Positions 13,485 through 36,410 of a stretch of DNA of 64,000 nucleotides are shown piece by piece. A program made the translations under genes and the position numbers. The DNA is from Halorhabdus amylolytica. Lineage in GTDB: Archaea; Halobacteriota; Halobacteria; Halobacteriales; Haloarculaceae. The notes under the pieces are model-generated. The model made no database searches. It saw only the letters and a list, made by a program, of their open reading frames with translations, and was not told the DNA's origin. How positions within the stretch are numbered: the first letter of the stretch is position 1; each line of letters begins with the position of its first letter. The stretch covers positions 58,182 through 122,181 of the forward strand of contig NZ_SPQG01000004.1 in assembly GCF_004944975.1 (NCBI RefSeq), given 5' to 3'.

Positions 13485-16400
13485 ACATTAATTCCAGTCT
13501 GGGTTTTCTCCCTGCTCCGACGGTCGTCTACGACAACAGTAGAGGCTCGATCGTCATCGTTTCAATCCCGGTTCGGGTTTTCTGACTCCTGCGACCATCT
13601 GGACCGACCCCGTCCTCGCACTGACCCGCTTGTTTCAATCCCGGTTCGGGTTTTCTGACTCCTGCGACCGGACCAAAACCCTGGTTCAGATGCCGTCACA
13701 GTCTGTTTCAATCCCGGTTCGGGTTTTCTGACTCCTGCGACCCGACTTAGAAGCGGGGACGGGGGTCGTCTTCAAGTTTCAATCCCGGTTCGGGTTTTCT
13801 GACTCCTGCGACGACTGGATTTGGAACGTCAGTCAGCCGTTGCATCGGGTTTCAATCCCGGTTCGGGTTTTCTGACTCCTGCGACGAGAAGAAGGGACTG
13901 AGACTAGAGACATCGAGGACTTGGTTTCAATCCCGGTTCGGGTTTTCTGACTCCTGCGACCCGGTCGCGAGGATCCCGAGGCCGAACAGAGTTAGTTTCA
14001 ATCCCGGTTCGGGTTTTCTGACTCCTGCGACCCTCCAGGTCGAAGTCGTCGGGCCGGATCTCCAGCTGTTTCAATCCCGGTTCGGGTTTTCTGACTCCTG
14101 CGACAGTAGCCGGTTGGCCCGACTTTCGTCAGCTCGCCGAGTTTCAATCCCGGTTCGGGTTTTCTGACTCCTGCGACCCTCGACGCTTTGGGGTGTGGTG
14201 AGCATCACGGCGTTTCAATCCCGGTTCGGGTTTTCTGACTCCTGCGACGATCGAGTACGCGTCGACGACGATCTCGGGCAAGTTTCAATCCCGGTTCGGG
14301 TTTTCTGACTCCTGCGACAGGTGACGATCGGATTTGGCGACGCCGAGGCGATCGAGTTTCAATCCCGGTTCGGGTTTTCTGACTCCTGCGACCGTCGACG
14401 GTCTTGTTCACCAACGGCACGGTCACGTGTTTCAATCCCGGTTCGGGTTTTCTGACTCCTGCGACGACGCTGGTTTTCATGAGGTCCTGCCAGCGGACGT
14501 GTTTCAATCCCGGTTCGGGTTTTCTGACTCCTGCGACTGATTGCCTGCTCTCGCTCGATATCCCGGCACTTCCGTTTCAATCCCGGTTCGGGTTTTCTGA
14601 CTCCTGCGACCGTACCACACCCGTTCACTATCGTCCACGGTCTGCCGTTTCAATCCCGGTTCGGGTTTTCTGACTCCTGCGACGGGGACAAAGCAGCGAC
14701 AGGAACCAAGACGTACCGGTTTCAATCCCGGTTCGGGTTTTCTGACTCCTGCGACCCGCTGACTCACCAGCGACGCGGTGCGCCACTCACCTGTTTCAAT
14801 CCCGGTTCGGGTTTTCTGACTCCTGCGACGACCGCGGGCTGGCCGACAGAACGGACGGCAGCGGGTTTCAATCCCGGTTCGGGTTTTCTGACTCCTGCGA
14901 CCCATGTCTAACTGAATATCCGCTCTAAGAGACTGGTTTCAATCCCGGTTCGGGTTTTCTGACTCCTGCGACAAGACGGCCGACGGCGCTCAGACGCCGT
15001 CGACCAGTTTCAATCCCGGTTCGGGTTTTCTGACTCCTGCGACAGGAGGGATCGGAGAACTCCCACGAATGTCTTCCCGTTTCAATCCCGGTTCGGGTTT
15101 TCTGACTCCTGCGACGGGTAAACGTCGTCGACGGCGAGCTCCTCGGCGGCCTGTTTCAATCCCGGTTCGGGTTTTCTGACTCCTGCGACTCGACATCGCA
15201 GGCTACAGCGACGTCGCGCTCTACAGGTTTCAATCCCGGTTCGGGTTTTCTGACTCCTGCGACGCGTGGATGATACCGGCCAGCAGCAGCAGGTCGACGT
15301 TTCAATCCCGGTTCGGGTTTTCTGACTCCTGCGACGGTGTTTGTGGGTCGGACGATCCGCCCGGGCTTGTTTCAATCCCGGTTCGGGTTTTCTGACTCCT
15401 GCGACAGGACGAGCCACTGTCGCTCGGTCTCGTTGACCGTGTTTCAATCCCGGTTCGGGTTTTCTGACTCCTGCGACCGCCGAGACGCTCTCCCTCCTCG
15501 AGGTCCCCACCCAGTTTCAATCCCGGTTCGGGTTTTCTGACTCCTGCGACGCGAGAACTACGAACGGGGGGCTGACGCCAACGTCGAGTTTCAATCCCGG
15601 TTCGGGTTTTCTGACTCCTGCGACACGAGTCGAAGACGTCCATCGCCAAGCGGCTGACTGTTTCAATCCCGGTTCGGGTTTTCTGACTCCTGCGACAGCG
15701 TGACGTTCGTGTCGACGCGATCAATCGGCGAGTTTCAATCCCGGTTCGGGTTTTCTGACTCCTGCGACCGAGAGATAAAAACCTTGCTGCTTGGATCTGA
15801 CTCGAGTTTCAATCCCGGTTCGGGTTTTCTGACTCCTGCGACCTCGGTGTTGCTCATGTCAAATCACCGCCGTCGATGTTTCAATCCCGGTTCGGGTTTT
15901 CTGACTCCTGCGACTCGTCGACGGCGTGTCCGGGGCGTTGGCATCCCCGCGTTTCAATCCCGGTTCGGGTTTTCTGACTCCTGCGACGGAACTCGTCGTT
16001 TCGGCGTCGGGCGACACGGATGAGTTTCAATCCCGGTTCGGGTTTTCTGACTCCTGCGACATCACCCCGTAGTTGTACCGGACGATATGCACCCACCGTT
16101 TCAATCCCGGTTCGGGTTTTCTGACTCCTGCGACGTCGAATCTTTGACGACCGACTGACTCGTCGTCAGGTTTCAATCCCGGTTCGGGTTTTCTGACTCC
16201 TGCGACCCCGACAGCGTGCCGCCCGAGGATGTGCCGATCTCCGTTTCAATCCCGGTTCGGGTTTTCTGACTCCTGCGACGCGACACTCGACGACTCCGAG
16301 CTCGTCCTTGATGGTTTCAATCCCGGTTCGGGTTTTCTGACTCCTGCGACGAGATCGCCGAACAGTGGGTCGGCCGGGTGCAGGACGTTTCAATCCCGGT

Positions 16401-17738
16401 TCGGGTTTTCTGACTCCTGCGACCGTCGGCCGATCCGACGCGAACCGAACGCATGGGCGTGTTTCAATCCCGGTTCGGGTTTTCTGACTCCTGCGACCTG
16501 ACGGATACCAACTTCCATGACCTCGTGTTGTTTCAATCCCGGTTCGGGTTTTCTGACTCCTGCGACGGCGCAACTGGGTGTGGGAACGGTTCGTCGACGA
16601 CGTGTTTCAATCCCGGTTCGGGTTTTCTGACTCCTGCGACCCCAGAAGTGGGACGCCATGAGGGCCGAGATATGATGTTTCAATCCCGGTTCGGGTTTTC
16701 TGACTCCTGCGACGTGTCGGTCGATGTCTGAGCGCAACGACACCGACAGGTTTCAATCCCGGTTCGGGTTTTCTGACTCCTGCGACCGCGCCGAGCAAGC
16801 CCGTCAGCGTCACCGGCGATGTGTTTCAATCCCGGTTCGGGTTTTCTGACTCCTGCGACTTGTCGAGGACAAGTCGGTACCCCGTCGCTTCCGTGTTTCA
16901 ATCCCGGTTCGGGTTTTCTGACTCCTGCGACCGGTCACAACGTCGTTCGACCGGAGCACGTTATCGTGTTTCAATCCCGGTTCGGGTTTTCTGACTCCTG
17001 CGACGACGCGGTAGCCGTCGCCCTCGCGTTCGTACTCACGGTTTCAATCCCGGTTCGGGTTTTCTGACTCCTGCGACATCCTGTCAGCGGGCGTTGCGTC
17101 GAGTTGGAGGTCTTGTTTCAATCCCGGTTCGGGTTTTCTGACTCCTGCGACAAGGCCAGCGCCCCGCCCGCCCACAGGATGAGGATCGTTTCAATCCCGG
17201 TTCGGGTTTTCTGACTCCTGCGACTCCGAGTCCGTCTCGCGGTCGGTGTCGTCAGGCATCGTTTCAATCCCGGTTCGGGTTTTCTGACTCCTGCGACCGA
17301 GCTCTCCCTTGACGAGATCGTCCGACAGACTGGCGTTTCAATCCCGGTTCGGGTTTTCTGACTCCTGCGACTTGATATAGCCGCGCTTACCCCATTAACA
17401 TCCACCTGTTTCAATCCCGGTTCGGGTTTTCTGACTCCTGCGACCGGAGGATCGGGCGAAAGACCTCCAACTCGACGCAAGTTTCAATCCCGGTTCGGGT
17501 TTTCTGACTCCTGCGACCTCAAGGTGGGCGACTTCTCGATCACTTCTCCGGTCTTGTTTCAATCCCGGTTCGGGTTTTCTGACTCCTGCGACATGCCTGA
17601 CTGCAAGGTGCGCGAACAGACGATCGAAGTTTCAATCCCGGTTCGGGTTTTCTGACTCCTGCGACGGTAACGAGGTTACTCCAATCATACTGGTTGACCT
17701 TGTTTCAATCCCGGTTCGGGTTTTCTGACTCCTGCGAC
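13485..17738 (-). CRISPR. CRISPR array 1 (58 intact repeats, 1 degenerate)
   Basis: 37-base repeats that on the plus strand begin GTTTCAATCCCGGTTCGGG and end GACTCCTGCGAC, separated by spacers of 32-38 bases. Intact repeats run from 13559 to 17738 (58 by my count). The terminal repeat 13485-13521 is degenerate, and its last 23 bases match the array 2 repeat at 22 positions. The conserved ATTGAAAC end, which forms the crRNA 5' handle in related systems, is at the 3' end only when read on the minus strand. Transcription therefore runs leftwards from the leader at 17739-17848 and the newest spacers are at the right end. Spacers are diverse and GC-rich, consistent with haloarchaeal virus or plasmid targets. 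Confidence 0.98.
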
Positions 17739-17848: not shown

Positions 17849-18121
17849 TCAGAGTACGTTGGACTGCTCGTCGGGTTGGTCCGCACCGAGATTCGAGATA
17901 TCGTCGAGGCAGGACTCACAGAGTCGGTAGATCCGAATCCGATCTCCGTCATCCGGATCGATGTGTTTCTCCAACTCATCCTCCAGCTCGACACGTTCGG
18001 TTTTGTTCACCTCCAGTTCGAACACGCTGTACTGCTTCCAGGCTCCGTACTTCTGGAGCGTTCGGTAGACCTGCCGGCGATTGGCGTCCTCGCTCACGTC
18101 GTAGGCGATTGCCAGGCGCAT
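17849..18121 (-). CDS. cas2: Cas2 endonuclease
   Basis: A 90-residue Cas2 with ferredoxin fold. The N-terminal strand MRLAIAYDVSED carries the conserved Asp8, followed by RRQVYRTLQKYGAWKQYSVFE. The Cas1-Cas2 complex captures and integrates new spacers. It is the last gene of the operon, two bases after cas1, and its stop codon touches the array 1 leader. Confidence 0.96.
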   Translation of the reverse strand: MRLAIAYDVSEDANRRQVYRTLQKYGAWKQYSVFELEVNKTERVELEDELEKHIDPDDGDRIRIYRLCESCLDDISNLGADQPDEQSNVL

Positions 18122-18123
18122 GG

Positions 18124-19128
18124 TTAGCGATCGAACGCAAGGGCGTGGTATTCGTCGAGTTCGTTCGTGATCGCCTTTCGCAATAGTATCGCCTGCTGGC
18201 GGACGGCTTTCCGACGCGTCACTTTGTACTCGAAGTACGGATGGGTCAACTCTTCCTGCATGAAGTCGTCGAACTTCGAAAGGTACGTCTTGAAGGCGTC
18301 GTCGCTCAGATGGTTGTCCTTCGTGAAGTCGTCGTGGGTGAACACGCCACGGTTGATCAACCGCGTCACGAACGCGTCACAGAAGATCGGCCGGAACTCC
18401 TCTTCGAGGTCGAGCGCCAGCGACGGACGACCGTGCCGATCAGCGTGGAGGATGCCGAGGAACGGATCAAGGTTGTACTGGCGCAGAGCGCTCATCGCCT
18501 CGTTCTTCATGAACGTGTAGGTCAGCGACAGCAGCGAGTTGACGTGGTCTTCAGGTGGACGTTTGGTCCGCTTTTCGAAGGTCCAGCCCGAGACCAAAGT
18601 CTCGTCGAGGCGATCGAAGTACCGCTCGGCAGCTTCGCCTTCCGTCCCGCGGAGGTCGTCCTTGTTCGAAGCGTTTCGAACCCGCTCGCCGAGGTCCTTC
18701 AGTACGTCCGTGCCGTGGACGCCCTTCCGGGAGAGGAGCGTCCGCTGGTTACGGATCTTCGCCGCGATCATCGCCTTCGCGATGGCGAGTTCCTCGGTGT
18801 ATCCTAGCGAATACTGAGCACGGCGGATCTCGGCGATGGTGTTCTTCTCGGGGACGAAACTCCCGCGGTACTTGCCGTTCTGGGTGAAGTAGTTGAGGAC
18901 GATCCCGTGTTCGTTGGCCTCGGCGACGAACGGCGTCGTGAAGTTCACGCCCCCGAAGACGTTGATCGTGTCCAGTTTCTCCTTGGGGTAGGTTGCGAGT
19001 TCCGGATCTTCATCTTCCTCGGCGTCGACGTCCCAGACGACGATCCGTCCCTCGTCGGTCCGGACTTGGGTTCCCTGCTTGGTGACGTAGACGACCGACT
19101 CGTCGAACATCCCCTCTGTGGCCTTCAT
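18124..19128 (-). CDS. cas1: Cas1 integrase
   Basis: A 334-residue Cas1 that inserts prespacers into the arrays. The N-terminal beta domain (YVTKQGTQVRTDEGRIVVWD) precedes the helical catalytic domain. The metal-binding Glu is in YTFMKNEAMSALRQ, the His in GILHADRHGRPSLALDLEEEF, and the Asp in the same segment. ATG 19128 overlaps the cas4 stop by four bases and gives the usual Cas1 length; longer upstream frames read through cas4. Confidence 0.96.
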   Translation of the reverse strand: MKATEGMFDESVVYVTKQGTQVRTDEGRIVVWDVDAEEDEDPELATYPKEKLDTINVFGGVNFTTPFVAEANEHGIVLNYFTQNGKYRGSFVPEKNTIAEIRRAQYSLGYTEELAIAKAMIAAKIRNQRTLLSRKGVHGTDVLKDLGERVRNASNKDDLRGTEGEAAERYFDRLDETLVSGWTFEKRTKRPPEDHVNSLLSLTYTFMKNEAMSALRQYNLDPFLGILHADRHGRPSLALDLEEEFRPIFCDAFVTRLINRGVFTHDDFTKDNHLSDDAFKTYLSKFDDFMQEELTHPYFEYKVTRRKAVRQQAILLRKAITNELDEYHALAFDR

Positions 19129-19733
19129 GCGTGATCCTCCCAGCCCGTGCCTTGGGCGCGTTCGGGCTCGAGTTGGGCTGTTTCGGCAGGCATGCAGTAT
19201 TCGCGGGCTGAACAGCCGTTGCACTTGTTCGGGTTGTCGGTGAACGGTGGAATCGAATCGACTGACATCGATTGAATCCGGGAAACGATTTTTGAAACCG
19301 CATCGCGATGCTCCTCGGTGATGTGAATCGCGTGACGTTCGTCGGTCGAATAGAGATAGATGTAGCCGACGTTCACCGGCTCACCGATGGCTTCTTCGAG
19401 CAATAGACAGTACGCCGCGATCTGTACCTCGTCGCTTGGGTAGTAATCCCCACTCTCGGCGCGTTTTCGCTCGATCGGAGTAAGAGACCCACGATCACTC
19501 TCGACGAGGTCGATCTTTCCGTGCAACCCAAGAGTGTCCGACCGGAAGTACCGTTCCCTGGTCCACCCGCCACGTCGAGACTGTGCGGCGTGTTTCGACC
19601 GGCCATCGACGAGTTCGTACGGCGTAGCGATCTGATCGTGATACCGCTGGTAATAGTATCTCCGTGGGCAGTAGACGTACTCCTGTAACGCACTCACGTG
19701 AACCAGTTCGTCGCGAAAGTTCGTCCTCGTCAT
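19125..19733 (-). CDS. cas4: Cas4 nuclease
   Basis: A 202-residue RecB-type nuclease with an iron-sulfur cluster that trims prespacers and selects PAM-containing ends. Cys22 (EYVYCPRRYYY) and Cys171, Cys174, Cys180 (CNGCSAREYC) would hold the cluster. Catalytic residues are Asp75 in HGKIDLVE and Glu88/Lys90 in IERKR, with Gln104 in the QxxxY motif. It overlaps both cas3' upstream and cas1 downstream by four bases. Confidence 0.95.
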   Translation of the reverse strand: MTRTNFRDELVHVSALQEYVYCPRRYYYQRYHDQIATPYELVDGRSKHAAQSRRGGWTRERYFRSDTLGLHGKIDLVESDRGSLTPIERKRAESGDYYPSDEVQIAAYCLLLEEAIGEPVNVGYIYLYSTDERHAIHITEEHRDAVSKIVSRIQSMSVDSIPPFTDNPNKCNGCSAREYCMPAETAQLEPERAQGTGWEDHA

Positions 19734-21835
19734 AAGCCATCGAGGAACGACCCGTCGTCACTGCCTGTAAGCCGTTGCTCTTGTTCGAGTAAGTGACAAT
19801 TGAGGTATAGAGCGTCCGTGCCGATTGCCAGACTGTGTAGCTCTTTGTTCTGGACGCGGATCGGATACAGGAAGAAAAAGTCATCGAGATTGTACTGCCG
19901 TTTCACTCGACTCGGTGCCCCGCTGACAGCGTAACAGAGAAGCCCTGACTCATCGCCATCAGAACGCTCGCCACGTTCGCGAAGTCGTTCGTTCACCTTC
20001 GTCACCGATGGGACGCGGGAACCAGTCCCGTTCGGATCGACACCGATCTGCAATCCCGACTGTAGCTGCGGTTTCCGACCCGTGTTCGACGTGTCGTCAA
20101 TCCACGCGTTCAGGGCTGGCCCAGTGAAATACACGCTCCGACCGAACCCGTCGTCGTTCGTGTCGATCGTTCCGTCGTAGACGCAGAACCCATCCACGTA
20201 GCGCTCCTTGCGCTCTATTTCAGGGTGCTGTTCCGACGGCACGTGTCTTTGGAAGGTGGTTCTGTCGACAAACTCGACATCGCCATACCGAAGCAAATAG
20301 AACAGGTCGTAGGTCGTGACGCGATCAGTCGTCCGATCGTAGACGAGCGCCTGAACGTTGTCGCCTCGGTACCATTGCAGGGCCGTCAGGACGCGCCAGT
20401 CGAGTGCGTCAGTGAACGCCTCCATGTCACGGAGCGAAAAATCTGTTCCAGAGCCGACGCCGAAGTGTCGTCTAATCCGATCCAGCGTGGCTTGTTTGAT
20501 CGCCTGCTGGTCGTCGGGCGGCGCGTTCCGGAGTCGATAATCGAGGTGCTCGAAGGCTTCGGCGGCGGAATACCGTGCATCGAACGTCTCAGGTTGTCGT
20601 GGGTCCGGATAGACTTCGTCGAGGATCTCGTCGAGTTCGTACCGCGTGATCTTTCGTTTTCCCTGGTCTGACAGGGCATCCGCCACTGTCGAAGGGACAT
20701 AACAGCGCGCTTCTTTCGGGTCGCTTGCCGAACGCAACCGCCCGAGGCGCTGCAGGAAGCTCGCACGATTGTGTCCGGCGAATAGGATTCGATTCACGTC
20801 GAAGTCGATCCCGACCTCGACGGCCGAATTGCTGACCAAGACGTCGAATCGGTCGAGCTTTTCGGCTTTGTTTTCCCCGTAGAAACCGTCGATCCGTTCT
20901 ACGTTCCCGTCCAGTTCATCATCGAGCCACGAGTACACCTCTCCGACTTCGTGAATCCCGTCTAGCATCACGACAGTCCGTCCGCCGCGACAGAACTCGA
21001 GCGTCTCGTCGCTGTCTTCGAACAGCTGATCGGCCGTGCTGAACGTCTGAGCGGAACGAACGTCGAGTTCGACCGGTGGCATCACGCCGAACCAGTCGTC
21101 GCCGGGCGAATCCGTGTAGGCTTTCCGTTCCTCACTCTCGTGTTCTGTCACCCGGTAATACGGGGCCTCCATCGCGTCCTCGAACAGTCGTCGTTGGCGC
21201 TGGTCCGGCGTGGCGCTGAGAAACGCCACCTTCCGGAGTGCGACGATCGCCTCGTCCTCGGATTGCATTTCGTCGAGGAGAAACCTGAGCGTGTTCTGTT
21301 CTTTCCGACCGGCGCGGTGGAACTCGTCGACGACCGCGACGTCGAAGTCCTTGTACTCGCGAGAGCCCTTTCGGTAGAGCCCACGTCGCATCATCACGAA
21401 GATGTCCGGGTTCGTGAGGAGAATGCGCTGGTCGTTGTACCGCCCTTCTTGTCGCAGCCAGTCGTCGAGGACCGCTCCGTGAGACGTCGAGCCGAAATCG
21501 TCGCTGCGTTCTGCGAGCGTCGACGCCGTCGCTTTCAACACCGCGACGTCGTGGTCGATGTACTCATCGACTCGGCGCTGAATTGCCTCCTGCTGGTCGG
21601 CGACGAGAGCATTAGTGGGATAGACTGCGATCGCGTCCATCCGATTGTCGAGTACAGGGGCGAGCCACGCCGACGTCTTTCCACCCCCTGTGGGACTGTC
21701 GTTGACGGCGACGAACCGATCCTCGTTTTCGAACAGTCGCTGCATCTCTCCCTGGTGAGCGAACGGGGATACATCGAACGGGTACGGTTCGTCGCGTGTC
21801 CGCAAGGCGACCCCAGCGAGATCGAGTGCCGTCAT
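19730..21835 (-). CDS. cas3': Type I-D Cas3' helicase
   Basis: A 701-residue superfamily 2 helicase that unwinds target DNA after Cascade binding. Walker A is SPTGGGKTS (Lys53), the DExH box is VVDEFHRAG (Asp170-His173), motif III is FLSATP (207-209) and motif VI is LQRLGRLRS. There is no HD nuclease domain: in type I-D the HD domain is carried by Cas10d, as found here at 23976-26477. It overlaps csc1 and cas4 by four bases each. Confidence 0.93.
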   Translation of the reverse strand: MTALDLAGVALRTRDEPYPFDVSPFAHQGEMQRLFENEDRFVAVNDSPTGGGKTSAWLAPVLDNRMDAIAVYPTNALVADQQEAIQRRVDEYIDHDVAVLKATASTLAERSDDFGSTSHGAVLDDWLRQEGRYNDQRILLTNPDIFVMMRRGLYRKGSREYKDFDVAVVDEFHRAGRKEQNTLRFLLDEMQSEDEAIVALRKVAFLSATPDQRQRRLFEDAMEAPYYRVTEHESEERKAYTDSPGDDWFGVMPPVELDVRSAQTFSTADQLFEDSDETLEFCRGGRTVVMLDGIHEVGEVYSWLDDELDGNVERIDGFYGENKAEKLDRFDVLVSNSAVEVGIDFDVNRILFAGHNRASFLQRLGRLRSASDPKEARCYVPSTVADALSDQGKRKITRYELDEILDEVYPDPRQPETFDARYSAAEAFEHLDYRLRNAPPDDQQAIKQATLDRIRRHFGVGSGTDFSLRDMEAFTDALDWRVLTALQWYRGDNVQALVYDRTTDRVTTYDLFYLLRYGDVEFVDRTTFQRHVPSEQHPEIERKERYVDGFCVYDGTIDTNDDGFGRSVYFTGPALNAWIDDTSNTGRKPQLQSGLQIGVDPNGTGSRVPSVTKVNERLRERGERSDGDESGLLCYAVSGAPSRVKRQYNLDDFFFLYPIRVQNKELHSLAIGTDALYLNCHLLEQEQRLTGSDDGSFLDGL

Positions 21836-22539
21836 CGTTTCGTCGCGAGGAAGGTGAGTTCAGTAGGGAACCGAACCCGGTCGTCGGCCCCTCGGTCGAT
21901 AGTGAGGTACTCTCCGGTGTAGTCGCCTTGCATGACGATGGGGGTCGGTTTCATCGATTTCGTGATGACGTTCCCCTCCGGTGGTTCCGGATGGTCGTAT
22001 GCACCGATCGGGTGATTCAACCTGAACTCTCCGGACTGTCTGGTCGCGGACCGATGCTGAATATCGAGTCGCGCCTTCCCCCGTTTCTTCCCAAGGCGAA
22101 CGTATTGGGGTAATCTTTCGTCGACTTCCATCGCGGACGGACCGCGGGGAATGACGAAAAACCTGAGCGGAGTGCCATGTGCGAGCGAGCGCCGCCGCCC
22201 GTAGGACGGCAGATTTTGCTTGGCGTTCGGATCGTCCTGGGCCGAATAGTTCACTTCGGCGTACTCGTCACGCGTCGCGTTGTAGGTCGTCGTCACGTAG
22301 TTCGGAGACGTTTCTGGCACGGGGGCCGCGGGCGAGACGTACACGTCGGTAATGTCCGCGGTATCCTCGACGTAGGTGGGTTCGTACGACGTGTCCACGT
22401 AGCGACCGCTCGCCAGGCCCAGCGCGTAGTAGAGGGCCGTATTGAGGATGTAGGGCTCGGTGTCCGCCAGGCGTCCGACCTCTCGGGACGTGAAGGTGAC
22501 TTCGCCCCGCGTTCTGAGGGTCGCTTCGAGAACCTCCAT
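21832..22539 (-). CDS. csc1: Csc1 (Cas5d) of type I-D Cascade
   Basis: A 235-residue Cas5-type RAMP subunit that would cap the crRNA 5' handle in the type I-D complex. Identification rests on its place between csc2 and cas3', its length, and the Csc1-like N-terminus MEVLEATLRTRGEVTFTSRE followed by YILNTALYYALGLASGRY. The C-terminal part PTPIVMQGDYTGEYLTIDRG is typical of the family. ATG 22539 lies four bases after the csc2 stop. Longer frames would overlap csc2 and look spurious. Confidence 0.88.
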   Translation of the reverse strand: MEVLEATLRTRGEVTFTSREVGRLADTEPYILNTALYYALGLASGRYVDTSYEPTYVEDTADITDVYVSPAAPVPETSPNYVTTTYNATRDEYAEVNYSAQDDPNAKQNLPSYGRRRSLAHGTPLRFFVIPRGPSAMEVDERLPQYVRLGKKRGKARLDIQHRSATRQSGEFRLNHPIGAYDHPEPPEGNVITKSMKPTPIVMQGDYTGEYLTIDRGADDRVRFPTELTFLATKR

Positions 22540-22543
22540 CGCT

Positions 22544-23539
22544 CTATTCAGCCTGACCCAAGAACGCGGTCGAGTGGTCGCGTTGTTCGGCGAGCACCTC
22601 GGCGAAGTCGTCACCAGTTGCCACGTCAACGATACTGTCGACGGTTTCCTGGGGAACCCGCTGTAAGTCGAGGCGGTCCGCGTCGATCGAATCTTCGAAT
22701 GCACTACTGACGTGTTCGGCCGTGCGACCGGGATCGAGGGCCTCAGCCATCACGACATCCGTCGCTGACTCGTAGTCCGTCGCGTCGTCAGCCTGGAGTC
22801 GGGCGATCGTCTCGCGAGTGAGCTCGAGGTTTGCCGGCCCTTCCTCGCCGCCGACGTAGACGCCGAGGATCCGATTGTTGACCCGGCCAAGGCGTGACGT
22901 CGTGGCACCGTACCGCTTGTTTTTCGCCGTAATTCCGAGCACGAATGCGAGTTCCGCAGGCGTCGCATCCCGAAGCGTGACGACGCTGGGGAACATCGTC
23001 CCCGGCTCGAAGAAGTCGGGTTCACGGATGGTCGCCTCGGCCGACTTGGCGTAATCGTCGCCAGGGGCGTTCTGGAACTTCTCGTCGATCACGACACTCG
23101 CGTCCCGGAGGGAGTAAGCCGTATCGTACATCACCCGAGACGTGATCGAGACGTCACTGCCTTCGTCACTGCTCGCGGCACTCCCGTAGAGGATGCACTC
23201 GACGCAGTCCTGGCACATCTCGTTGACCTGCATCGTGCATTCGTCTTCGTCGTCCTCGAAGAGTCCCAGGTCACGCTGGAGGGCCTTGCCGAAGCGCCGA
23301 TCGCTGCCGGTCTGCTTTCGCATGAACATCAGCCCGGGAGCGTAATCCATCTGTCCGTCTTCGGCGTCGAGTGCGACTGTCGCGATGTCGGCGTCTTCAC
23401 CGTTCGTCGTGAAGACGGCGTGGCTCTCGAGTTCACGCAGGACGAGGATGTTCACGAAGTTGCTCCGCGGGCGGAGCGTCATTTCGTCTGCGGGGACGGT
23501 ACCGGGTTCGAGTTCGGGATAGGTGCTCTGGTCGATCAT
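22544..23539 (-). CDS. csc2: Csc2 (Cas7d) backbone subunit
   Basis: A 331-residue Cas7-type RAMP that polymerises along the crRNA spacer in type I-D Cascade. Features are RSNFVNILVLRELESHAVFTTNG near the N-terminus, a cysteine pattern CTMQVNEMCQDCVECILYGSA that may bind zinc, SRVMYDTAYSLRDASVVIDEKFQNAP, and the C-terminal KNKRYGATTSRLGRVNNRILG. The start overlaps the stop of the small upstream gene by four bases. Confidence 0.92.
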   Translation of the reverse strand: MIDQSTYPELEPGTVPADEMTLRPRSNFVNILVLRELESHAVFTTNGEDADIATVALDAEDGQMDYAPGLMFMRKQTGSDRRFGKALQRDLGLFEDDEDECTMQVNEMCQDCVECILYGSAASSDEGSDVSITSRVMYDTAYSLRDASVVIDEKFQNAPGDDYAKSAEATIREPDFFEPGTMFPSVVTLRDATPAELAFVLGITAKNKRYGATTSRLGRVNNRILGVYVGGEEGPANLELTRETIARLQADDATDYESATDVVMAEALDPGRTAEHVSSAFEDSIDADRLDLQRVPQETVDSIVDVATGDDFAEVLAEQRDHSTAFLGQAE

Positions 23540-23979
23540 TGATCGTCAGTATCGTCGGATTCGTTGTCGAACTGTTCTCGCTGCAGGCGGAGCGTCGCGG
23601 CGTAGAACCCGTCGGCGAGGTTGTTGGCCCGCCGTTTCAATCGAGAAGGTTTGCCGTCGAACATGTCGATCAGTACCTTATCGACGAAAAACTCGGCGTA
23701 CCGCTCGACGCGCTCGTCGTAGGTTCCATCCACGGTACTGTCTTCATGCGGGACACGGTACACCTGTTCGCTCCGCTCGGGGACCTTCCCGACGCGGCCG
23801 GCGACGGCGTCGATGGCGTCCTGCCGGGAAATGTCGAGCGGACCGAACTCCTTGACTGCCTTGACGCTCTCGCGGAACACGCGCTCGATTGCGTACGCCT
23901 TGTCGTTCCCTGGCGCGGGCCGGATCACGTCGAACGCTCGAGCTGCGAGTTCCGATATCGTATCGCTCGTTTCTTTCAT
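23536..23979 (-). CDS. Cas11-like small subunit (split-off Cas10d C-terminus)
   Basis: A 147-residue, mostly helical protein with no catalytic motif, between cas10d and csc2. It overlaps both neighbours by four bases (ATGA) and starts MKETSDTISELAARAFDVIR. The adjacent cas10d is only 833 residues; from memory, type I-D Cas10d proteins usually approach 950-1000. The C-terminal helical segment is expressed separately as the small subunit Cas11d in other I-D systems, there by internal translation initiation. Size, position and helical character fit a dedicated cas11d gene here. The identification is an inference, since no motif proves it. If right, it would line the non-target strand path of Cascade. 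Confidence 0.7.
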   Translation of the reverse strand: MKETSDTISELAARAFDVIRPAPGNDKAYAIERVFRESVKAVKEFGPLDISRQDAIDAVAGRVGKVPERSEQVYRVPHEDSTVDGTYDERVERYAEFFVDKVLIDMFDGKPSRLKRRANNLADGFYAATLRLQREQFDNESDDTDDQ

Positions 23980-26477
23980 TCGTGTGATGATTTCGTTTCA
24001 ATAGTCGTCGAGTCGATGCCGGTTTCCTGATCAAGCACTCGCGCTTCCTCCAGCAGGTAGCGAGCGTTACTGCCATCATCGGCCTGCGCGATGCGCTTGA
24101 GCAGGTGCGATCCAGGGAGTAGCTTGTTTCTGGTCACTCGGAGGAATTTCGCGAACAGCGCGTCGTTCCGGTCCGTACCGTACCCGAGTTTGATCAGGGC
24201 CGAGGCGGCGCGTAAACGGGACTTCAGCTCGGATAGCCGGATCTCGGTCCCGTAGAAGTCGTGGACTTGCGTGAATCCGGCCCCGATCCTGGCGTACGTC
24301 TGGAAGTCTCTCCCTCTAACGTCCGGGATCGGCGACTCCGAGACGTACACGCGCAGCCCGGCGTAAGCCGCGACGGCGAGTGCGACGTACACGCCGAAAA
24401 ACTGGAACTCCGTTTCGTTGTCCTCCGGTTTGTAGTATCCGAGCGTGCGCGCCCCGAACTGCGAGCCAGGATCGAAGCCCTGGTCGAGCGTCTCGGCCAT
24501 CTGTCGGCCCGACTCCTCGTCGAACAGTGCGCTCTCGAATCCATCCACCTCGGTCGAGTCGAGATCGCCAGTCAACCAGAGAACTGCCTCGGCAAGTCGA
24601 CCGAGTTCGATCCGGCTCTCGCCGCTGAATTGGCTGAGCACGTTACCGTATGAGCGCCACGAGAGCGGCGTATAGAAGTAATCGGGCACCAGGTGGATGA
24701 ACAGTCGGCCACCCTCGCGACGGGAGGCACCAGTTTCCCGGAGGGACAGTTCGATCTGACAGGGAACGCACGCGAGCAGATCGTCCGGTTTGCCGGCGTC
24801 CACAGGGACGTGATTCGAGTATCCGGCCTGGAGTGTCGTCAGCGACTTCGGTGCTTCGAGGTCGCTCTTGCGCGTGCTCGTGGTCCCTCGGTTGCAGAGG
24901 ACACACGTCTTCCCGCGTCGAGTGGCATGGTACTCCTCGAAGGGATCGCTGAGCGTCGTGTCGCTCGCCGGCATCGGTCGCCCATCGATCGACACTACGT
25001 CGGAAACGTACGCTTCGAGTTCCGATCGGAGATTTCCGGCGTGAGCTTCTTCGACGATGTCGGTCCAGTCATCAGCAAGTCGATCGAGACCCGCCCGGAC
25101 GCGATCTGTAATGTCTCCCACCGAAGTCACGCCGTCCTCGATCAGTACCTGGCCGATGCCGTAGGAGTATTCCCATTTCCCGCCGGCCGTGGGGGACAGA
25201 TCGTCGTCTTCACTTGCGGCGATTAGGCCATCGCGGACGCCGGATGAAACACCAAAAACGTCACAGGTGACTTCGAGGCTCGACCGGTCGTCGTCGATCT
25301 TTTCGAGGATCGGATCGACGAACGCCCGACGGACGGTATACGCCAGTCTTGCGTACCCGACAGGCCTCCGCGTTCGTTCTATCTCTATTGGGAGGTGTTC
25401 CTCTATGCCAGCCATCGAGTCTGCCATGCTGTCGGTGGGTTCGTCGTCCCCGTCAGCATCGCCGACTGACTTCCGGACGACTGCACCGAGAACCTTGTCG
25501 GCACCGGCATAGAAGAACTCCTGATCATTGATTCCGTAGAATCCCATCGAACGCGTGGCGAGGTTATTCGTCAATTCACTCGAATCAGCGTAGGCATCGT
25601 GGGAGCCCCGAATGTTGGTCTGTAACTGATCGATGATCTCGGCCACAAACTCTTGATCGACGGACGGCCGGTCCGCACCCTTTGGAACGACATACACACA
25701 GCCATCCTGATATATAGCAAGAGGTTGATATTCGAACGTACCCAGGCAATCGGAAATCGCACTATTGAGGAGGTTCGTCAAGATGCCTTTCACGTCATCA
25801 AGGACGTGCCGTCGGAGTTCAAACTCCGATTTGAGATACGCGCTATCGATCGCGCTCTGGACTGACCCGTCGGTGGCTGCTTCAGGAGTGTCGCACGAGG
25901 CGAGTCCGTCAGCGACGCGGATGAACGGTCGAAGATCGTCGAATCGCCTGGTCGTCTGGTCGTAGTTAGCCGTCCAGTCGTCGTGGTGATCGATCGCACA
26001 CGAGCGGAAGTCCTTCGGATCGAGACCCGGCGCGAATGTGTCGAGTCCGAATCTCTCGACGTACTGCTGAACTTCATTGGCCGGGATGTCGAATCGACTG
26101 TTCGGCTCTGCGTCGCGCTCTGGATCGAGTTTGTGAACGTCGTGTATCGTGAACAGAGCGATTGCGGCCCGCAAGTCGTCCTCATCGAGAGTATACCCAT
26201 CGAGCGAGCGCACGGCGTCGTTCAACTGTGCGAGGACGAACACGCCGTTTCGTACGTGATTGAGCAGTGACTGATCGGTCTTTCCATATTCTACGCTCTT
26301 CGCCGCCTCGAATCCCCAGCCTTCGTTTACGAGTTGAGGATCGACCTCGGTCCGGAAATGCTCCAGAACCGTTTCTTCGACCGTTTGGTCCTCTTCGCTT
26401 GCTTCGTCTTCTGGTGCCGAATGGAGGTTCCCGAGAACTGAGTCTAGAACCTCCATCTCCGATCGTTCATCAGTCAT
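23976..26477 (-). CDS. cas10d: Cas10d (Csc3), HD-nuclease large subunit of type I-D
   Basis: An 833-residue large subunit. The N-terminal HD nuclease domain has His74 (LLNHVRNGVF), His112-Asp113 (TIHDVHKL), His164/165 (AIDHHDDW) and Asp190 (VADGLAS). A Cys4 zinc finger sits mid-protein (Cys525, Cys528, Cys570, Cys573: CVLCN and CVPC), between degenerate palm-like regions. No GGDD cyclase motif is seen, so it should not make cyclic oligoadenylate. In type I-D it both recognises the PAM and cleaves target DNA. The ATG at 26477 overlaps the cas6 end. The C-terminus is shorter than usual, matching the separate small-subunit gene downstream. Confidence 0.93.
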   Translation of the reverse strand: MTDERSEMEVLDSVLGNLHSAPEDEASEEDQTVEETVLEHFRTEVDPQLVNEGWGFEAAKSVEYGKTDQSLLNHVRNGVFVLAQLNDAVRSLDGYTLDEDDLRAAIALFTIHDVHKLDPERDAEPNSRFDIPANEVQQYVERFGLDTFAPGLDPKDFRSCAIDHHDDWTANYDQTTRRFDDLRPFIRVADGLASCDTPEAATDGSVQSAIDSAYLKSEFELRRHVLDDVKGILTNLLNSAISDCLGTFEYQPLAIYQDGCVYVVPKGADRPSVDQEFVAEIIDQLQTNIRGSHDAYADSSELTNNLATRSMGFYGINDQEFFYAGADKVLGAVVRKSVGDADGDDEPTDSMADSMAGIEEHLPIEIERTRRPVGYARLAYTVRRAFVDPILEKIDDDRSSLEVTCDVFGVSSGVRDGLIAASEDDDLSPTAGGKWEYSYGIGQVLIEDGVTSVGDITDRVRAGLDRLADDWTDIVEEAHAGNLRSELEAYVSDVVSIDGRPMPASDTTLSDPFEEYHATRRGKTCVLCNRGTTSTRKSDLEAPKSLTTLQAGYSNHVPVDAGKPDDLLACVPCQIELSLRETGASRREGGRLFIHLVPDYFYTPLSWRSYGNVLSQFSGESRIELGRLAEAVLWLTGDLDSTEVDGFESALFDEESGRQMAETLDQGFDPGSQFGARTLGYYKPEDNETEFQFFGVYVALAVAAYAGLRVYVSESPIPDVRGRDFQTYARIGAGFTQVHDFYGTEIRLSELKSRLRAASALIKLGYGTDRNDALFAKFLRVTRNKLLPGSHLLKRIAQADDGSNARYLLEEARVLDQETGIDSTTIETKSSHE

Positions 26478-27489: not shown

Positions 27490-28164
27490 ATGCGAACGTA
27501 CATCTCGACGCTGGGATTCCACGAGACCAGGGTCACGCGACCGGTAATCAAACACGGGATCGACGATGGAGATCGCGTCGTCCTCGTTCGGCCTGCTAAT
27601 GACGGGAACAGCGAGAGGGCTGCAGACGCGGTCGGGTACGTCGAAGATATGATCGCGGAGATCGAACCCGATGCCACAGTCACGACCGAGCAGGTGGACA
27701 CGAGTGGGTTCATGGCGACGACATTGCAGTGTAGCGATCTGTTGACCGCGGTCGATCAGGATCGCGATCTCGTCGTTAACTTCGGTGGAGGCGCACGCGA
27801 GGTACTGCTTCCGTTGTTGATCGCGACAGTACTCCATGCGCCGATCGTTGATCAAGCGTTCCAGTACACAGACGTTGACCAGGAGGTGGAGACGGTCCCG
27901 ATCCCGAATTTGACGACACAGATTCCCTCGAGTGCCGTCGATACGTTCGAGTTGCTGGTCCATCTCGATCGTGAAATGGCGCTGCCGGAACTGGCTACAG
28001 AGAGCGACAAGAGCAAGAGCACGGTCAGTCGACACGTGGAGTCGCTGGCCGAAGCTGGCGTGTTTGAAACTTGGCTGGAGGACAACGCGAAGTACGTCTC
28101 ATTGTCACAGACTGGTGTATTGATCGCCCGTGCCTGCCCAAGTGAGGACTTGACTGCTCTGTAG
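27490..28164 (+). CDS. csa3: Csa3 CARF-wHTH regulator
   Basis: A 224-residue CRISPR-associated regulator. Residues 1-125 form a CARF domain (MRTYISTLGFHETRVTRPVIKH, VVLVRPANDG, VVNFGGGAREVLLPLLIATV). Residues ~140-210 form a winged helix (LATESDKSKSTVSRHVESLAEAGVFETW). Csa3 proteins in other archaea activate adaptation genes or array transcription. A cyclic oligoadenylate ligand would have to come from elsewhere because Cas10d here lacks a cyclase motif. It is divergent from cas6 and its stop codon touches the array 2 leader. Confidence 0.9.
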   Translation: MRTYISTLGFHETRVTRPVIKHGIDDGDRVVLVRPANDGNSERAADAVGYVEDMIAEIEPDATVTTEQVDTSGFMATTLQCSDLLTAVDQDRDLVVNFGGGAREVLLPLLIATVLHAPIVDQAFQYTDVDQEVETVPIPNLTTQIPSSAVDTFELLVHLDREMALPELATESDKSKSTVSRHVESLAEAGVFETWLEDNAKYVSLSQTGVLIARACPSEDLTAL

Positions 28165-28273: not shown

Positions 28274-31200
28274 GTCGAAGCAGGGAGAAAACCCAGGACG
28301 GGATTGAAACTCACCTTGCGGGTTGCCCGTTCCATCGCCGAACTGACGTCGAAGCAGGGAGAAAACCCAGGACGGGATTGAAACATCGACGCCGTCGAGT
28401 CCATGACGGACGCCCTCGGCGTCGAAGCAGGGAGAAAACCCAGGACGGGATTGAAACACGTTGATCGCCGATTTCGCGTCTTCGCTATCGACGCGTCGAA
28501 GCAGGGAGAAAACCCAGGACGGGATTGAAACGAGGTGACGGAGGTGGCGGACGGAGCGGGGGAGTCCGTCGAAGCAGGGAGAAAACCCAGGACGGGATTG
28601 AAACGAGGTGACGGCGAATGAGTGACGAGAACCTCGGCGCGTCGAAGCAGGGAGAAAACCCAGGACGGGATTGAAACCAGAAGCGGGTCGGCGTCACCGT
28701 CGACGAACCCGAGCAGTCGAAGCAGGGAGAAAACCCAGGACGGGATTGAAACGTCGCCGATGCGTTCGGCGAGGCGGTCGACCTCGGCGGTCGAAGCAGG
28801 GAGAAAACCCAGGACGGGATTGAAACGCCGCCGAAGACGATACCGACTACTCGGCCGTGGCCGTCGAAGCAGGGAGAAAACCCAGGACGGGATTGAAACG
28901 TGTGAACGCTGACATGTTGGAAGGGGATCACTACATGTCGAAGCAGGGAGAAAACCCAGGACGGGATTGAAACTCGTCGAGCTGCTCGCGAAGGGTCTCG
29001 ACCGCTGCGGTCGAAGCAGGGAGAAAACCCAGGACGGGATTGAAACTGGAACTCACCGTCGAAGGGCGCTACGTCCCGCGAGGTCGAAGCAGGGAGAAAA
29101 CCCAGGACGGGATTGAAACTTGCGGCCGTGATCCAGAAAGACGCCGATGTCGCCCCGTCGAAGCAGGGAGAAAACCCAGGACGGGATTGAAACGCTATTC
29201 GTGTATCTGCTGGCAGGTTATACAATCGTCGAAGCAGGGAGAAAACCCAGGACGGGATTGAAACTTGTAGGTTTTCCCGTCCGGCGTTTCCACGGTTGGT
29301 CGAAGCAGGGAGAAAACCCAGGACGGGATTGAAACATCTAAACGTTCCATCAACGCTTCTGTATCAACCGTCGAAGCAGGGAGAAAACCCAGGACGGGAT
29401 TGAAACTTGCACCCTTCCCAGAGGCTTTGACACTCTTGGGTGCGTCGAAGCAGGGAGAAAACCCAGGACGGGATTGAAACAGGAGATCGCCCGTGCTGTC
29501 CCCGCCCTCTTGCCCGGTCGAAGCAGGGAGAAAACCCAGGACGGGATTGAAACAGCGCTCAAGGAGGTCGGTCGGAAGCATCGCCTGGTCGAAGCAGGGA
29601 GAAAACCCAGGACGGGATTGAAACAATAATGGGCCGTGTGACCGTTCTCGGCCGGTCCGGTCGAAGCAGGGAGAAAACCCAGGACGGGATTGAAACGCGT
29701 CGATCAGCTCCCAGCCGTTGACGGGATCGGGCGTCGAAGCAGGGAGAAAACCCAGGACGGGATTGAAACACAACTACGAGACCGCAACTGAAGGATCGGA
29801 CTACGAGTCGAAGCAGGGAGAAAACCCAGGACGGGATTGAAACTACATCGTCGCCGAAGACGTCCCGTACCCGGACCACGTCGAAGCAGGGAGAAAACCC
29901 AGGACGGGATTGAAACCGGATTCGGTTGTACGGAGTCGATACTGAGTCGCAAGGTCGAAGCAGGGAGAAAACCCAGGACGGGATTGAAACGAACAGACAG
30001 CCTGGTCTATTGCTATGAGCCATAACGTCGAAGCAGGGAGAAAACCCAGGACGGGATTGAAACTGCTCCCGAGCGTCGTGATGGAGTGGGGTGGCTGGGG
30101 TCGAAGCAGGGAGAAAACCCAGGACGGGATTGAAACCGGGAGACCGCCCCCTAATGCGTCCTCCTCGATGACGTCGAAGCAGGGAGAAAACCCAGGACGG
30201 GATTGAAACAAACGGGTAGTTCGACATATACTGATACGGACGATGTCGAAGCAGGGAGAAAACCCAGGACGGGATTGAAACTTTTCCGACGCGTTCACGA
30301 CTGACGACGCACTCGGGTCGAAGCAGGGAGAAAACCCAGGACGGGATTGAAACAATAGCGACTTGTCGCCTTCTTCGTCTTGCCATTCTGGTCGAAGCAG
30401 GGAGAAAACCCAGGACGGGATTGAAACGAGTTTTTCGAGGAGTGGCCTGAGGATGAGTCGAAAGTCGAAGCAGGGAGAAAACCCAGGACGGGATTGAAAC
30501 ATCCGGTCGGGTACTGGTGCGATTACTGCGGTGAATGTCGAAGCAGGGAGAAAACCCAGGACGGGATTGAAACATCCGGTCGGGTACTGGTGCGATTACT
30601 GCGGTGAATGTCGAAGCAGGGAGAAAACCCAGGACGGGATTGAAACTGGATAGCGTTTGCCAGAGAGAACGTCAATCCAGTGTCGAAGCAGGGAGAAAAC
30701 CCAGGACGGGATTGAAACTGGATAGCGTTTGCCAGAGAGAACGTCAATCCAGTGTCGAAGCAGGGAGAAAACCCAGGACGGGATTGAAACATGATGAATG
30801 GATTCGCTTTCAGCAAGAGAAACATGTCGAAGCAGGGAGAAAACCCAGGACGGGATTGAAACACCGGCTACGCCGACCCGTCGGATGCGAACGCCTGGAG
30901 TCGAAGCAGGGAGAAAACCCAGGACGGGATTGAAACCCCATCGCCATTGTTGTTGATGACTGATGCGGCGTGTCGAAGCAGGGAGAAAACCCAGGACGGG
31001 ATTGAAACTACGTGTTCCCGTCAGTCGTCGTGACGGTCTGGCCCGTCGAAGCAGGGAGAAAACCCAGGACGGGATTGAAACAGTACACCTACGACATCGA
31101 CGTCCTGTGTATCTACGGTCGAAGCAGGGAGAAAACCCAGGACGGGATTGAAACAGCGGTCGTGGGAAAATGGTAGTGGACGACGGCTCTGGTCGAAGCA

Positions 31201-31448
31201 GGGAGAAAACCCAGGACGGGATTGAAACACAGTGCGGACACTCCAACCGACAGAACTCGTCGAGGTCGAAGCAGGGAGAAAACCCAGGACGGGATTGAAA
31301 CAGTTGATCGCTAGCCATTTCTTCCGGCATGGCGACGACGTCGAAGCAGGGAGAAAACCCAGGACGGGATTGAAACGTGGGCCTCTGCATCGCTCTGATG
31401 CTCGTCTGAATGTCGAAGCAGGGAGAAAACCCAGGACGGGATTGAAAC
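28274..31448 (+). CRISPR. CRISPR array 2 (44 repeats)
   Basis: Forty-four 37-base repeats that begin GTCGAAGCAGGGAG and end GGACGGGATTGAAAC, with 43 spacers of 34-38 bases. The orientation (ATTGAAAC at the 3' end) shows plus-strand transcription from the leader at 28165-28273, so newest spacers are at the left. The repeat differs from that of array 1 at 8 positions but keeps AGAAAACCC and GGGATTGAAAC. Two spacers occur twice in a row near the old end (30501-30753). The last repeat is intact, with no degenerate trailer. Confidence 0.98.
30501..30753 (+). repeat. Tandemly duplicated spacers in array 2
   Basis: The 36-base spacer 30501-30536 recurs exactly at 30574-30609, and the 35-base spacer 30647-30681 recurs exactly at 30719-30753, giving order A-A-B-B. 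Both duplications include one repeat each. The first spacer can be read as coding for a Cys-X-X-Cys peptide (YWCDYCGE), as in zinc-finger proteins of mobile elements. Confidence 0.9.
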
Positions 31449-35128: not shown

Positions 35129-35152
35129 CGCCTTTCCTGTCACCTCCGCCGT

Positions 35153-36274
35153 TCATTCGTCGATCAGTTTGCCTTCGAGGTAGTCGCGGGTGTTGTCGCG
35201 TGTCGCCTGTGCGACCTTGACGAACGAAACCACGCGCTGGCCGTCCTCACGACGGTCGCTCCCGATCTCGAGTTCGATGCCCTGATCGCGGAGATGGGAG
35301 AGCAACGCCTCGATCACGTCGGGATCGCCCCGGACCGTGTGTTCCTCACCGACGGTTTCACCGCGTTGGACCGCTCGAATGGTTTCGATCGCGGGTAGGA
35401 GGATCGACTCCCCCAGTTCCTGTGCGCGCTGGCGGGACTCACCCCGCGTTCGATCCAGTTCGACGGCCTGGAACGCTTCCCGGACGATCCGCGGGAAGAC
35501 GAAGTCACGCCCGTAGTCGAAGGGAAGCGAGAAGGCGTGGTCGAGATCGGCCCGATGCGTGACCGACGTGGTGTACTTCAACTGGTGCGTGCCGTCGATC
35601 GATTGCATGACGACGCCTTCCCGCCCCTCGCGGTCGAGGTCGGCGATTATCTCCCGGAGTGCCTCCGGCGTTTCCTCCGGCTTGTACTCGCCGAATGCGG
35701 GAACCTGCGGGAGACCGTACTCTTCGCACAGTTCGCGTCGGCGTGGCACTGATAGCGGCGTTCCAGTCTCACGGTGGCGCACGTCGAAGACCTCGACCCG
35801 CGCCGATTCGACTTCCGGATAGTCGTGTGGCGTGTAGGGGTTTTCGGGACCGAGCAACTCCCCACAGAGCATGAGATCCGGGTAGTCGTCGAAGAACGCG
35901 CCGGGATCGAGCAGCTCGCGAACCTTCGCGGTGGTGTACGGACAGAGATAGCCGCTCCGGGTGAACCCCAGGACGTCGCCGTCGATCGCGGCGACCCGGA
36001 CGTTGTAACCGTTGCGTTTCTCTTCGACGGTCACCCGGCTGTCGAAGTACTCGGGGATTCCGGGGTCGAGCACGAGTGTTCGCGGGATCGATGGGAATCC
36101 GTGGACGACCTCGCCGTCGACGATCGCCGTCCCGCGTTCGAGACCCCGGCGCGCGTCAGTGAGATGGCGATAGCGCCGCCCCTCAAAGGTATCGTGCTGG
36201 AACTGTTCGAGGAGATCCCCGAGATCGTCCGGCGGTACGCCGAGGGCAGCGGCCAGTTCCGGGTCGGCGTCCAT
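35153..36274 (-). CDS. ATP-dependent RNA ligase (Pab1020 family)
   Basis: A 373-residue RNA ligase of the archaeal Rnl3 type. The nucleotidyl-accepting lysine is in motif I EEKRNGYNVRV. Further motifs are LMLCGELLGPENPY (III/IIIa region), REGVVMQSIDGTHQLKYTT (IV/V), and the C-terminal dimerisation domain. In related archaea this ligase circularises or seals RNA and is found with a PIN-domain partner protein; that partner is encoded here at 38395, separated by two unrelated genes. ATG 36274 (MDADPELAAALGV) is chosen over a longer frame. Confidence 0.9.
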   Translation of the reverse strand: MDADPELAAALGVPPDDLGDLLEQFQHDTFEGRRYRHLTDARRGLERGTAIVDGEVVHGFPSIPRTLVLDPGIPEYFDSRVTVEEKRNGYNVRVAAIDGDVLGFTRSGYLCPYTTAKVRELLDPGAFFDDYPDLMLCGELLGPENPYTPHDYPEVESARVEVFDVRHRETGTPLSVPRRRELCEEYGLPQVPAFGEYKPEETPEALREIIADLDREGREGVVMQSIDGTHQLKYTTSVTHRADLDHAFSLPFDYGRDFVFPRIVREAFQAVELDRTRGESRQRAQELGESILLPAIETIRAVQRGETVGEEHTVRGDPDVIEALLSHLRDQGIELEIGSDRREDGQRVVSFVKVAQATRDNTRDYLEGKLIDE

Positions 36275-36410
36275 ACCTCGATCTACGGTCGCGGGCGATA
36301 TAGGTGTGGTGCCACACCGCACAGCCCAGCTCACGCGAGCACGAGGAGAGTCCTCGGCGAGGCCGAAGAGATCCGCGCGGAACTCGAACGGGATGCAAAA
36401 CCGGGCGCGA

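What the first reader, a model, noticed from the sequence alone, without database searches (positions are those of the whole stretch)
23536..26477. Type I-D Cas10d with a separate, coupled small-subunit gene
Seen: an 833-residue HD/zinc-finger Cas10d is followed by a 147-residue helical gene that overlaps it by ATGA and overlaps csc2 by ATGA. Known: in studied type I-D systems the small subunit Cas11d comes from internal translation inside cas10d, and Cas10d is usually longer (lengths from memory). Inference: here the C-terminal helical module has become an independent gene. The clean start/stop overlap and frame change argue against a random frameshift. This would show how internal-start and stand-alone small subunits interconvert in evolution.
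Basis: partly seen in the sequence, partly recalled or inferred. Interest (0 to 1): 0.75.

Follow-up and report, generated by a model that had tools for sequence, protein, structure and literature searches.

The report
Stand-alone Cas11d gene in type I-D
In this salt-loving archaeon and many relatives, a CRISPR defence protein that textbooks place at the end of a larger protein is made from its own gene, and the family tree shows the two arrangements have changed into each other repeatedly.

Summary
The window holds a complete type I-D operon (csa3 / cas6-cas10d-X-csc2-csc1-cas3'-cas4-cas1-cas2) between two CRISPR arrays. Cas10d (833 aa) stops where the small-subunit domain of other Cas10d proteins begins. 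X (147 aa, overlapping it by ATGA) is that missing domain: it matches only the last ~125 positions of the Csc3/Cas10d model, and its predicted structure has Cas11d of the solved I-D Cascade (7SBA) as best PDB match (TM 0.76). It is not a sequencing error or a decayed gene. The same split occurs in 12 of 26 haloarchaeal genomes with a match and in all close methanogen/ANME relatives found, under strong purifying selection. In fused relatives an in-frame ATG sits at the start position of X. On the Cas10d tree neither the split nor the fused form has one origin (AU p = 8e-10 and 4e-7). A split ancestor with about four re-fusions is favoured, not proven. Published I-D work that I could read describes Cas11d only as an internal translation product. 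I file this as a new variant: type I-D with a dedicated cas11d and a Cas10d lacking the Cas11 domain. Complex, stoichiometry and expression are inferred.

The parts
23536..23979 (-). stand-alone cas11d (147 aa), small subunit of type I-D Cascade
   Evidence: Csc3 model positions 823-946 only; AF2 pLDDT 88.8 / pTM 0.85; best PDB fold match 7sba_J Cas11d, TM 0.76/0.77; dN/dS about 0.05 to nearest relatives
23976..26477 (-). cas10d/csc3 (833 aa): HD and zinc-finger large subunit without the C-terminal Cas11 domain
   Evidence: Csc3 model 1-787 of 946; AF2 model finds only I-D Cas10d structures at E<=0.001; profile of the small proteins aligns only to the C-terminal extension of fused rows, where P0002 has gaps
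23976..23979 (-). ATGA: cas11d start codon overlapping the cas10d stop codon (-1 frame)
   Evidence: sequence; same junction in nearly all split haloarchaeal loci
23536..23539 (-). ATGA: csc2 start overlapping the cas11d stop
   Evidence: sequence
22544..23539 (-). csc2/cas7d
   Evidence: TIGR03157 E 9.5e-89
21832..22539 (-). csc1/cas5d (start chosen at MEVLEATL)
   Evidence: TIGR03159 E 3.3e-52; start coordinate
19730..21835 (-). cas3' helicase (type I-D)
   Evidence: TIGR03158 E 4.3e-87
19125..19733 (-). cas4
   Evidence: TIGR00372 E 4.1e-33
18124..19128 (-). cas1
   Evidence: TIGR04093 cas1 of type I-D E 3.7e-115; start coordinate
17849..18121 (-). cas2
   Evidence: TIGR01573
26470..27363 (-). 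cas6d (297 aa from MARQLENE; overlaps cas10d by 8 nt)
   Evidence: PDLC02043 Cas6d E 1e-131 over residues 239-519 of the longer ORF; start coordinate
27490..28164 (+). csa3, CARF-HTH regulator, divergent from cas6
   Evidence: TIGR01884 E 2.5e-20
28274..31448 (+). CRISPR array, 44 exact 37-nt repeats GTCGAAGCAGGGAGAAAACCCAGGACGGGATTGAAAC
13559..17738 (-). CRISPR array, 58 exact 37-nt repeats (GTTTCAATCCCGGTTCGGGTTTTCTGACTCCTGCGAC on the + strand)

Best explanation
[quoted passage not shown] Cas10d ends just before the Cas11 domain. The ribosome ends cas10d at the TGA of ATGA and, in the likely case, restarts at the overlapping ATG to make Cas11d (inferred; such coupling is measured for other overlapping pairs in Haloferax). 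Cas11d then lines the belly of Cascade and stabilises the displaced DNA strand. It should also fill the slot that Cas10d's own C-terminal domain fills elsewhere, so about three free Cas11d per complex are expected, against two plus one fused domain in Synechocystis (inferred). Fused and split forms differ by a small change in a short linker between the core and a conserved start codon. The start site hides an out-of-frame stop, in ATGA or in the ribosome-binding site GGTGA, so a one- or two-base shift can turn one form into the other. This has happened several times. Shown: the split, homology, fold, conservation, repeated change on the tree. Inferred: coupling, stoichiometry, direction of change.
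For: Model coverage 1-787 plus 823-946 of 946 and 14-817 plus 825-963 of 964. The profile of small proteins has 7sba_J Cas11d as top PDB sequence hit, though marginal (E 0.051, collinear). Its fold search ranks 7sba_J Cas11d first (TM 0.76/0.77, probability 1.00); the next four hits are I-D Cas10d chains and the rest fall to TM <= 0.36. Offsets place Cas11d at residue ~830 of the 975-residue Synechocystis Cas10d; here Cas10d ends at 833. Split in 12 of 26 haloarchaeal genomes with matches, in Methanothrix/Methanosaeta, ANME-2, Methanoperedens and Methanocrinis relatives and a Halococcus plasmid. Fused forms keep an in-frame ATG at that position, preceded by GGAGG or AGGTGATC in the fused outgroup; AGGTGATC also precedes the stand-alone gene in most Methanothrix relatives, often with the cas10d TGA inside it. 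dN/dS mostly 0.02-0.12. The small-domain tree agrees with the large-part tree in its main clades. One clade of split rejected (p 8e-10), one clade of fused rejected (p 4e-7). Only one cas10d and one cas11d in the genome.
Against: No expression or complex data. Sequence identity to the solved Cas11d is low (17% in the structural alignment) and the sequence-only hit is marginal. Direction is not settled: a two-way model beats split-only change by only 2.7 log-likelihood units, and a tree with ~7 independent splits is nearly as short as one with a split ancestor and four re-fusions. The key primary paper on internal translation (McBride 2020) is not held, so a remark there on separate archaeal cas11d genes cannot be excluded.
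Confidence: 0.87

Rival explanations
1. A frameshift, real or from sequencing, has broken a normal fused cas10d in this genome and the two pieces are decaying.
For: Fused forms are the published norm; a fused relative with 82% identical small domain exists (Halorussus pelagicus); a small indel suffices.
Against: The same split lies in complete and draft genomes of many genera and in methanogens. Both parts are under purifying selection after the split. Junction and start codon are conserved. Adaptation genes and arrays are intact.
Confidence: 0.02
2. Programmed -1 frameshifting or stop readthrough also makes a full-length fused Cas10d, so the split is only apparent.
For: In ATGA loci the small frame is -1; in some Methanothrix loci the genes share a frame with a single TGA between them.
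Against: No slippery heptamer in the usable stretch in 26 of 27 loci examined; frames differ between lineages (same, +1, -1); in the window only 19 nt are usable.
Confidence: 0.04
3. The small protein is only the detached tail of Cas10d, bound 1:1 to it, and does not act as the repeated filament subunit.
For: Strict coupling at an ATGA overlap could give near 1:1 synthesis; haloarchaeal junctions mostly lack a strong ribosome-binding site.
Against: The same start is kept as an internal start in fused relatives, where the only evident purpose of a second start would be extra free copies; the fold matches free Cas11d over its whole length; methanogen forms carry their own strong ribosome-binding site.
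Confidence: 0.1
4. The split was never ancestral: each split lineage arose separately from a fused, internal-start gene. (This concerns direction only and is compatible with the identity of the gene as cas11d.)
For: All outgroup I-D genes except one divergent case are fused; junction types differ between Methanothrix, ANME-2 and haloarchaea.
Against: Needs about 7 splits against 1 split and 4 re-fusions; the one-way model is worse by 2.7 log-likelihood units at equal parameter number.
Confidence: 0.3

Closest known systems
Type I-D Cascade of Synechocystis PCC6803 (7SBA/7SBB; PMC9123187)
   Same: HD-Cas10d, Csc1, Csc2, separate Cas3' helicase; Cas11d fold and its boundary at residue ~830 of Cas10d
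   Different: There Cas11d is an internal in-frame product of cas10d and Cas10d keeps its own C-terminal Cas11 domain; here Cas11d has its own gene and Cas10d has no such domain
Fused haloarchaeal type I-D (Halorubrum lacusprofundi plasmid NC_012030, Halorussus pelagicus plasmid NZ_CP035122)
   Same: Closely related Cas10d and, in Halorussus pelagicus, the same gene order; conserved internal ATG at the same position
   Different: One gene of about 966-1059 aa instead of two
Cas11b of Haloferax volcanii type I-B (PMC11899642)
   Same: Small subunit needed for efficient interference in a haloarchaeon
   Different: Made by an internal start within cas8b; different subtype and large subunit
Type I-A and I-E small subunits (Csa5, Cse2) and type III Csm2/Cmr5
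   Same: Small subunit encoded by its own gene (established knowledge; PMC11899642 for I-A and I-E)
   Different: No sequence relation was detected here; large subunits are Cas8 or cyclase-type Cas10

Membership tests
Type I-D CRISPR-Cas | Cas10d/Csc3 with N-terminal HD domain and zinc finger | tested here: met
   TIGR03174 E 4e-146; conserved H112, D113, D190 and four cysteines; fold search finds only I-D Cas10d at E<=0.001
Type I-D CRISPR-Cas | Csc1 (Cas5d), Csc2 (Cas7d) and a separate Cas3' helicase in the same operon | tested here: met
   TIGR03159, TIGR03157, TIGR03158 above cut-off
Type I-D CRISPR-Cas | Adaptation genes and CRISPR arrays | tested here: met
   cas4, cas1, cas2; arrays of 44 and 58 repeats
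Cas10d as described in studied I-D systems | C-terminal Cas11-like helical domain within Cas10d | tested here: not met
   P0002 ends at Csc3 model position 787 of 946; small-protein profile aligns only to the fused rows' extension, where P0002 has gaps
Cas11d (I-D small subunit) | Homology to the C-terminus of Cas10d | tested here: met
   Csc3 model 823-946, E 4e-22; PADLOC E 3.9e-53
Cas11d (I-D small subunit) | Helical fold of solved Cas11d | tested here: met
   7sba_J, TM 0.76/0.77, rank 1
Cas11d (I-D small subunit) | Produced by internal in-frame translation of cas10d | tested here: not met
   Own gene in another frame with the cas10d stop at its start codon
Cas11d (I-D small subunit) | Several copies along the belly of Cascade, binding the displaced strand | not testable with these tools
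   needs purified complex

The most novel reading that the evidence does not exclude
Probability: 0.12. Interest if true: 0.8.

Novelty: new variant of a known kind. Interest (0 to 1): 0.6.

Why it matters
A 2023 review states that internal expression of Cas11d appears widely conserved across all I-D groups and that the evolutionary lineage of Cas11 in type I systems is unknown (PMC10212523). Here is an archaeal clade where about half or more of the I-D systems carry a dedicated cas11d gene and a Cas10d without the Cas11 domain, with fused and split sister lineages. That gives natural before/after pairs for testing how genes-within-genes and separate genes interconvert. It also gives a Cascade predicted to need one more free small subunit, and a natural two-gene I-D effector that would suit hosts where internal starts do not work. 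Annotation pipelines can label both genes cas10d, which hides the variant.

Tried and rejected
Sequence-only search of single proteins against the PDB gave no useful hit for either; profiles and structure were needed. A viral-contig scan found no relatives. Programmed frameshifting was considered and no conserved slippery site was found. Long-branch rows (L047, L048, L103, L110) made the first tree's root part unsafe, so the careful tree leaves them out. Literature searches for a separate Cas11d in type I-D found none. McBride et al. 2020 is not held, so absence there is not shown. The argument 'ATGA overlap excludes a frameshift' was rejected. ATGA after the internal Met in all fused close relatives was considered as a relic of past splitting, but Thr or Ser after Met is common for other reasons, so it counts little.
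Full report
OBSERVATION. They lie in a full type I-D operon: csa3 (divergent) / cas6, cas10d, small gene, csc2, csc1, cas3', cas4, cas1, cas2. Two arrays with different 37-nt repeats, 44 and 58 exact copies, point outward on either side. Most junctions in the operon are short overlaps, so ATGA is normal here and is not in itself proof of design.

IDENTITY OF THE SMALL GENE. The Csc3 model of NCBIfam (946 positions) is covered 1-787 by the 833-aa protein and 823-946 by the 147-aa protein, both above the curated cut-off. PADLOC's Cas10_Id model gives 14-817 and 825-963 of 964. In the Synechocystis structure, Cas11d (146 aa) equals residues ~830-975 of Cas10d, by the offset between the two matched chains. 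So the window's Cas10d ends where Cas11d starts. A profile of the small proteins has 7sba_J Cas11d as first PDB hit, though at E 0.051. AlphaFold2 gives an all-helical model with pLDDT 88.8 and pTM 0.85. Foldseek against the PDB ranks Cas11d 7sba_J first (TM 0.76/0.77); the next four hits are chains of I-D Cas10d; everything listed after that falls to TM 0.36 or less. The model of the 833-aa protein is less sure (pLDDT 76.5) but finds only I-D Cas10d structures at E<=0.001. Profile-profile comparison places the small protein solely on the C-terminal extension of fused relatives, where the window's Cas10d has gaps.

SURVEY. In two overlapping draws of 392 haloarchaeal genomes each, 26 genomes have a match to the small protein: 12 as a separate open frame of 153-212 aa and 14 as part of a 966-1229 aa frame. 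A scan of GTDB contigs added named relatives. Split: Halorientalis (MAG), Natrialba asiatica, Haloferax sulfurifontis, three Halarchaeum species, Halorutilus salinus, and all close methanogen or methanotroph relatives found (Methanothrix/Methanosaeta, ANME-2, Methanoperedens, Methanocrinis); also a Halococcus dombrowskii plasmid, where RefSeq calls both genes cas10d. Fused: Halorussus pelagicus (82% identical small domain), Halobacteriales YIM A00013, the Halorubrum lacusprofundi group, Methanocalculus and others. Nine of eleven split-locus pairs have dN/dS of 0.02-0.12 for the small gene; the two exceptions (0.20 and 0.27) are still well below 1. The window's genome has one copy of each gene.

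THE JUNCTION. In the alignment, fused proteins carry an in-frame Met at the position where the split gene starts. The linker from the last conserved Asp of the core to that ATG is mostly 18-57 nt (83 in one case). Its length is a multiple of 3 in all fused loci and usually not in split ones. In the fused outgroup (L104-L108 and Methanocalculus L073) the internal ATG follows a ribosome-binding site (GGAGG, GGAGGTGAT or AGGTGATC). In most Methanothrix-group relatives AGGTGATC or a close variant lies 4 nt before the stand-alone start, and in several of them the cas10d stop TGA is inside it (AGG TGA TC); in two others the same element is read in another frame and the stop is the TGA of ATGA. Haloarchaea mostly lack the site and use ATGA. 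The conserved unit is thus the start site of the small subunit; whether cas10d runs through it depends on a base or two in the linker. Termination-reinitiation at overlapping gene pairs has been tested for nine pairs in Haloferax volcanii and five in E. coli, with strict coupling in 13 of 14 (PMC6728339); that it acts here is inference.

HISTORY. On the tree of the large part only (47 rows, careful), 41 archaeal rows form a clade with 28 split and 13 fused. Split lineages branch first; fused ones are nested as one group of ten and three single rows. The small-domain tree agrees in its main clades, so the two parts descended together. Holding all split rows, or all fused rows of the clade, as one clade is rejected (p-AU 8e-10 and 4e-7). 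A simple two-state model puts split at the base of the clade with probability 0.91-0.94; a model with splitting only is worse by 2.7 log-likelihood units. I take repeated change as shown and its direction as likely but open. One divergent row (L103) is split too, apparently independently.

HOW IT LIKELY WORKS. By analogy with the solved I-D Cascade (one Cas10d, seven Cas7d, one Cas5d, two Cas11d; PMC9123187), Cas11d forms the minor filament and holds the displaced strand. Here Cas10d has no Cas11 domain of its own, so a third free Cas11d should fill that place. This is inference and easy to test.

KNOWN OR NEW. The papers I could read describe Cas11d of type I-D only as an internal product (PMC9123187, PMC10212523, PMC7694759); the 2025 classification passages I saw mention no separate Cas11d in I-D (PMC12669027). 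The 2011 prediction that the extra C-terminal helices of Cas10d are a fused small subunit (PMC3150331) fits well. The primary 2020 paper is not held, so novelty is likely but not proven. I call it a new variant of type I-D.

Noticed in passing
L035 versus L038 (two Halarchaeum loci), cas11d: The two loci are about 95% identical in DNA across most of the compared cas10d and csc2 region, but a patch of about 300 nt inside cas11d falls to 55-75%, as if only the small subunit had been exchanged by recombination.
   Followed up: partly
L027 and L028 (G224:C1, ~61 kb apart): One haloarchaeal genome holds two split I-D loci with identical cas10d and cas11d.
   Followed up: no
L078, NZ_CP095009.1 189394-192329: RefSeq names both the large gene (WP_280518337) and the stand-alone small gene (WP_280518338) cas10d, probably because one model hits both; the variant is hidden in annotation.
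   Followed up: yes
L062 (Mesotoga MAG) and L063 (Eremiobacterota MAG): These bacterial MAG contigs carry Cas10d nearly identical to Methanosaeta (L069) and ANME-2 (L061) loci, so they are probably mis-binned.
   Followed up: no
window 30463-30752: Two spacers of the 28274-31448 array occur as tandem duplicates (41 unique of 43 spacers).
   Followed up: no
window 33287-36334: A UvrD/Rep-like helicase ORF (33287-35128 +) next to an RNA ligase (TIGR01209, 35153-36334 -) beyond the array.
   Followed up: no
L047 and L048: Very divergent fused Cas10d proteins (open frames of 1139 and 1229 aa) in two haloarchaea, on long branches away from the other archaeal sequences.
   Followed up: no
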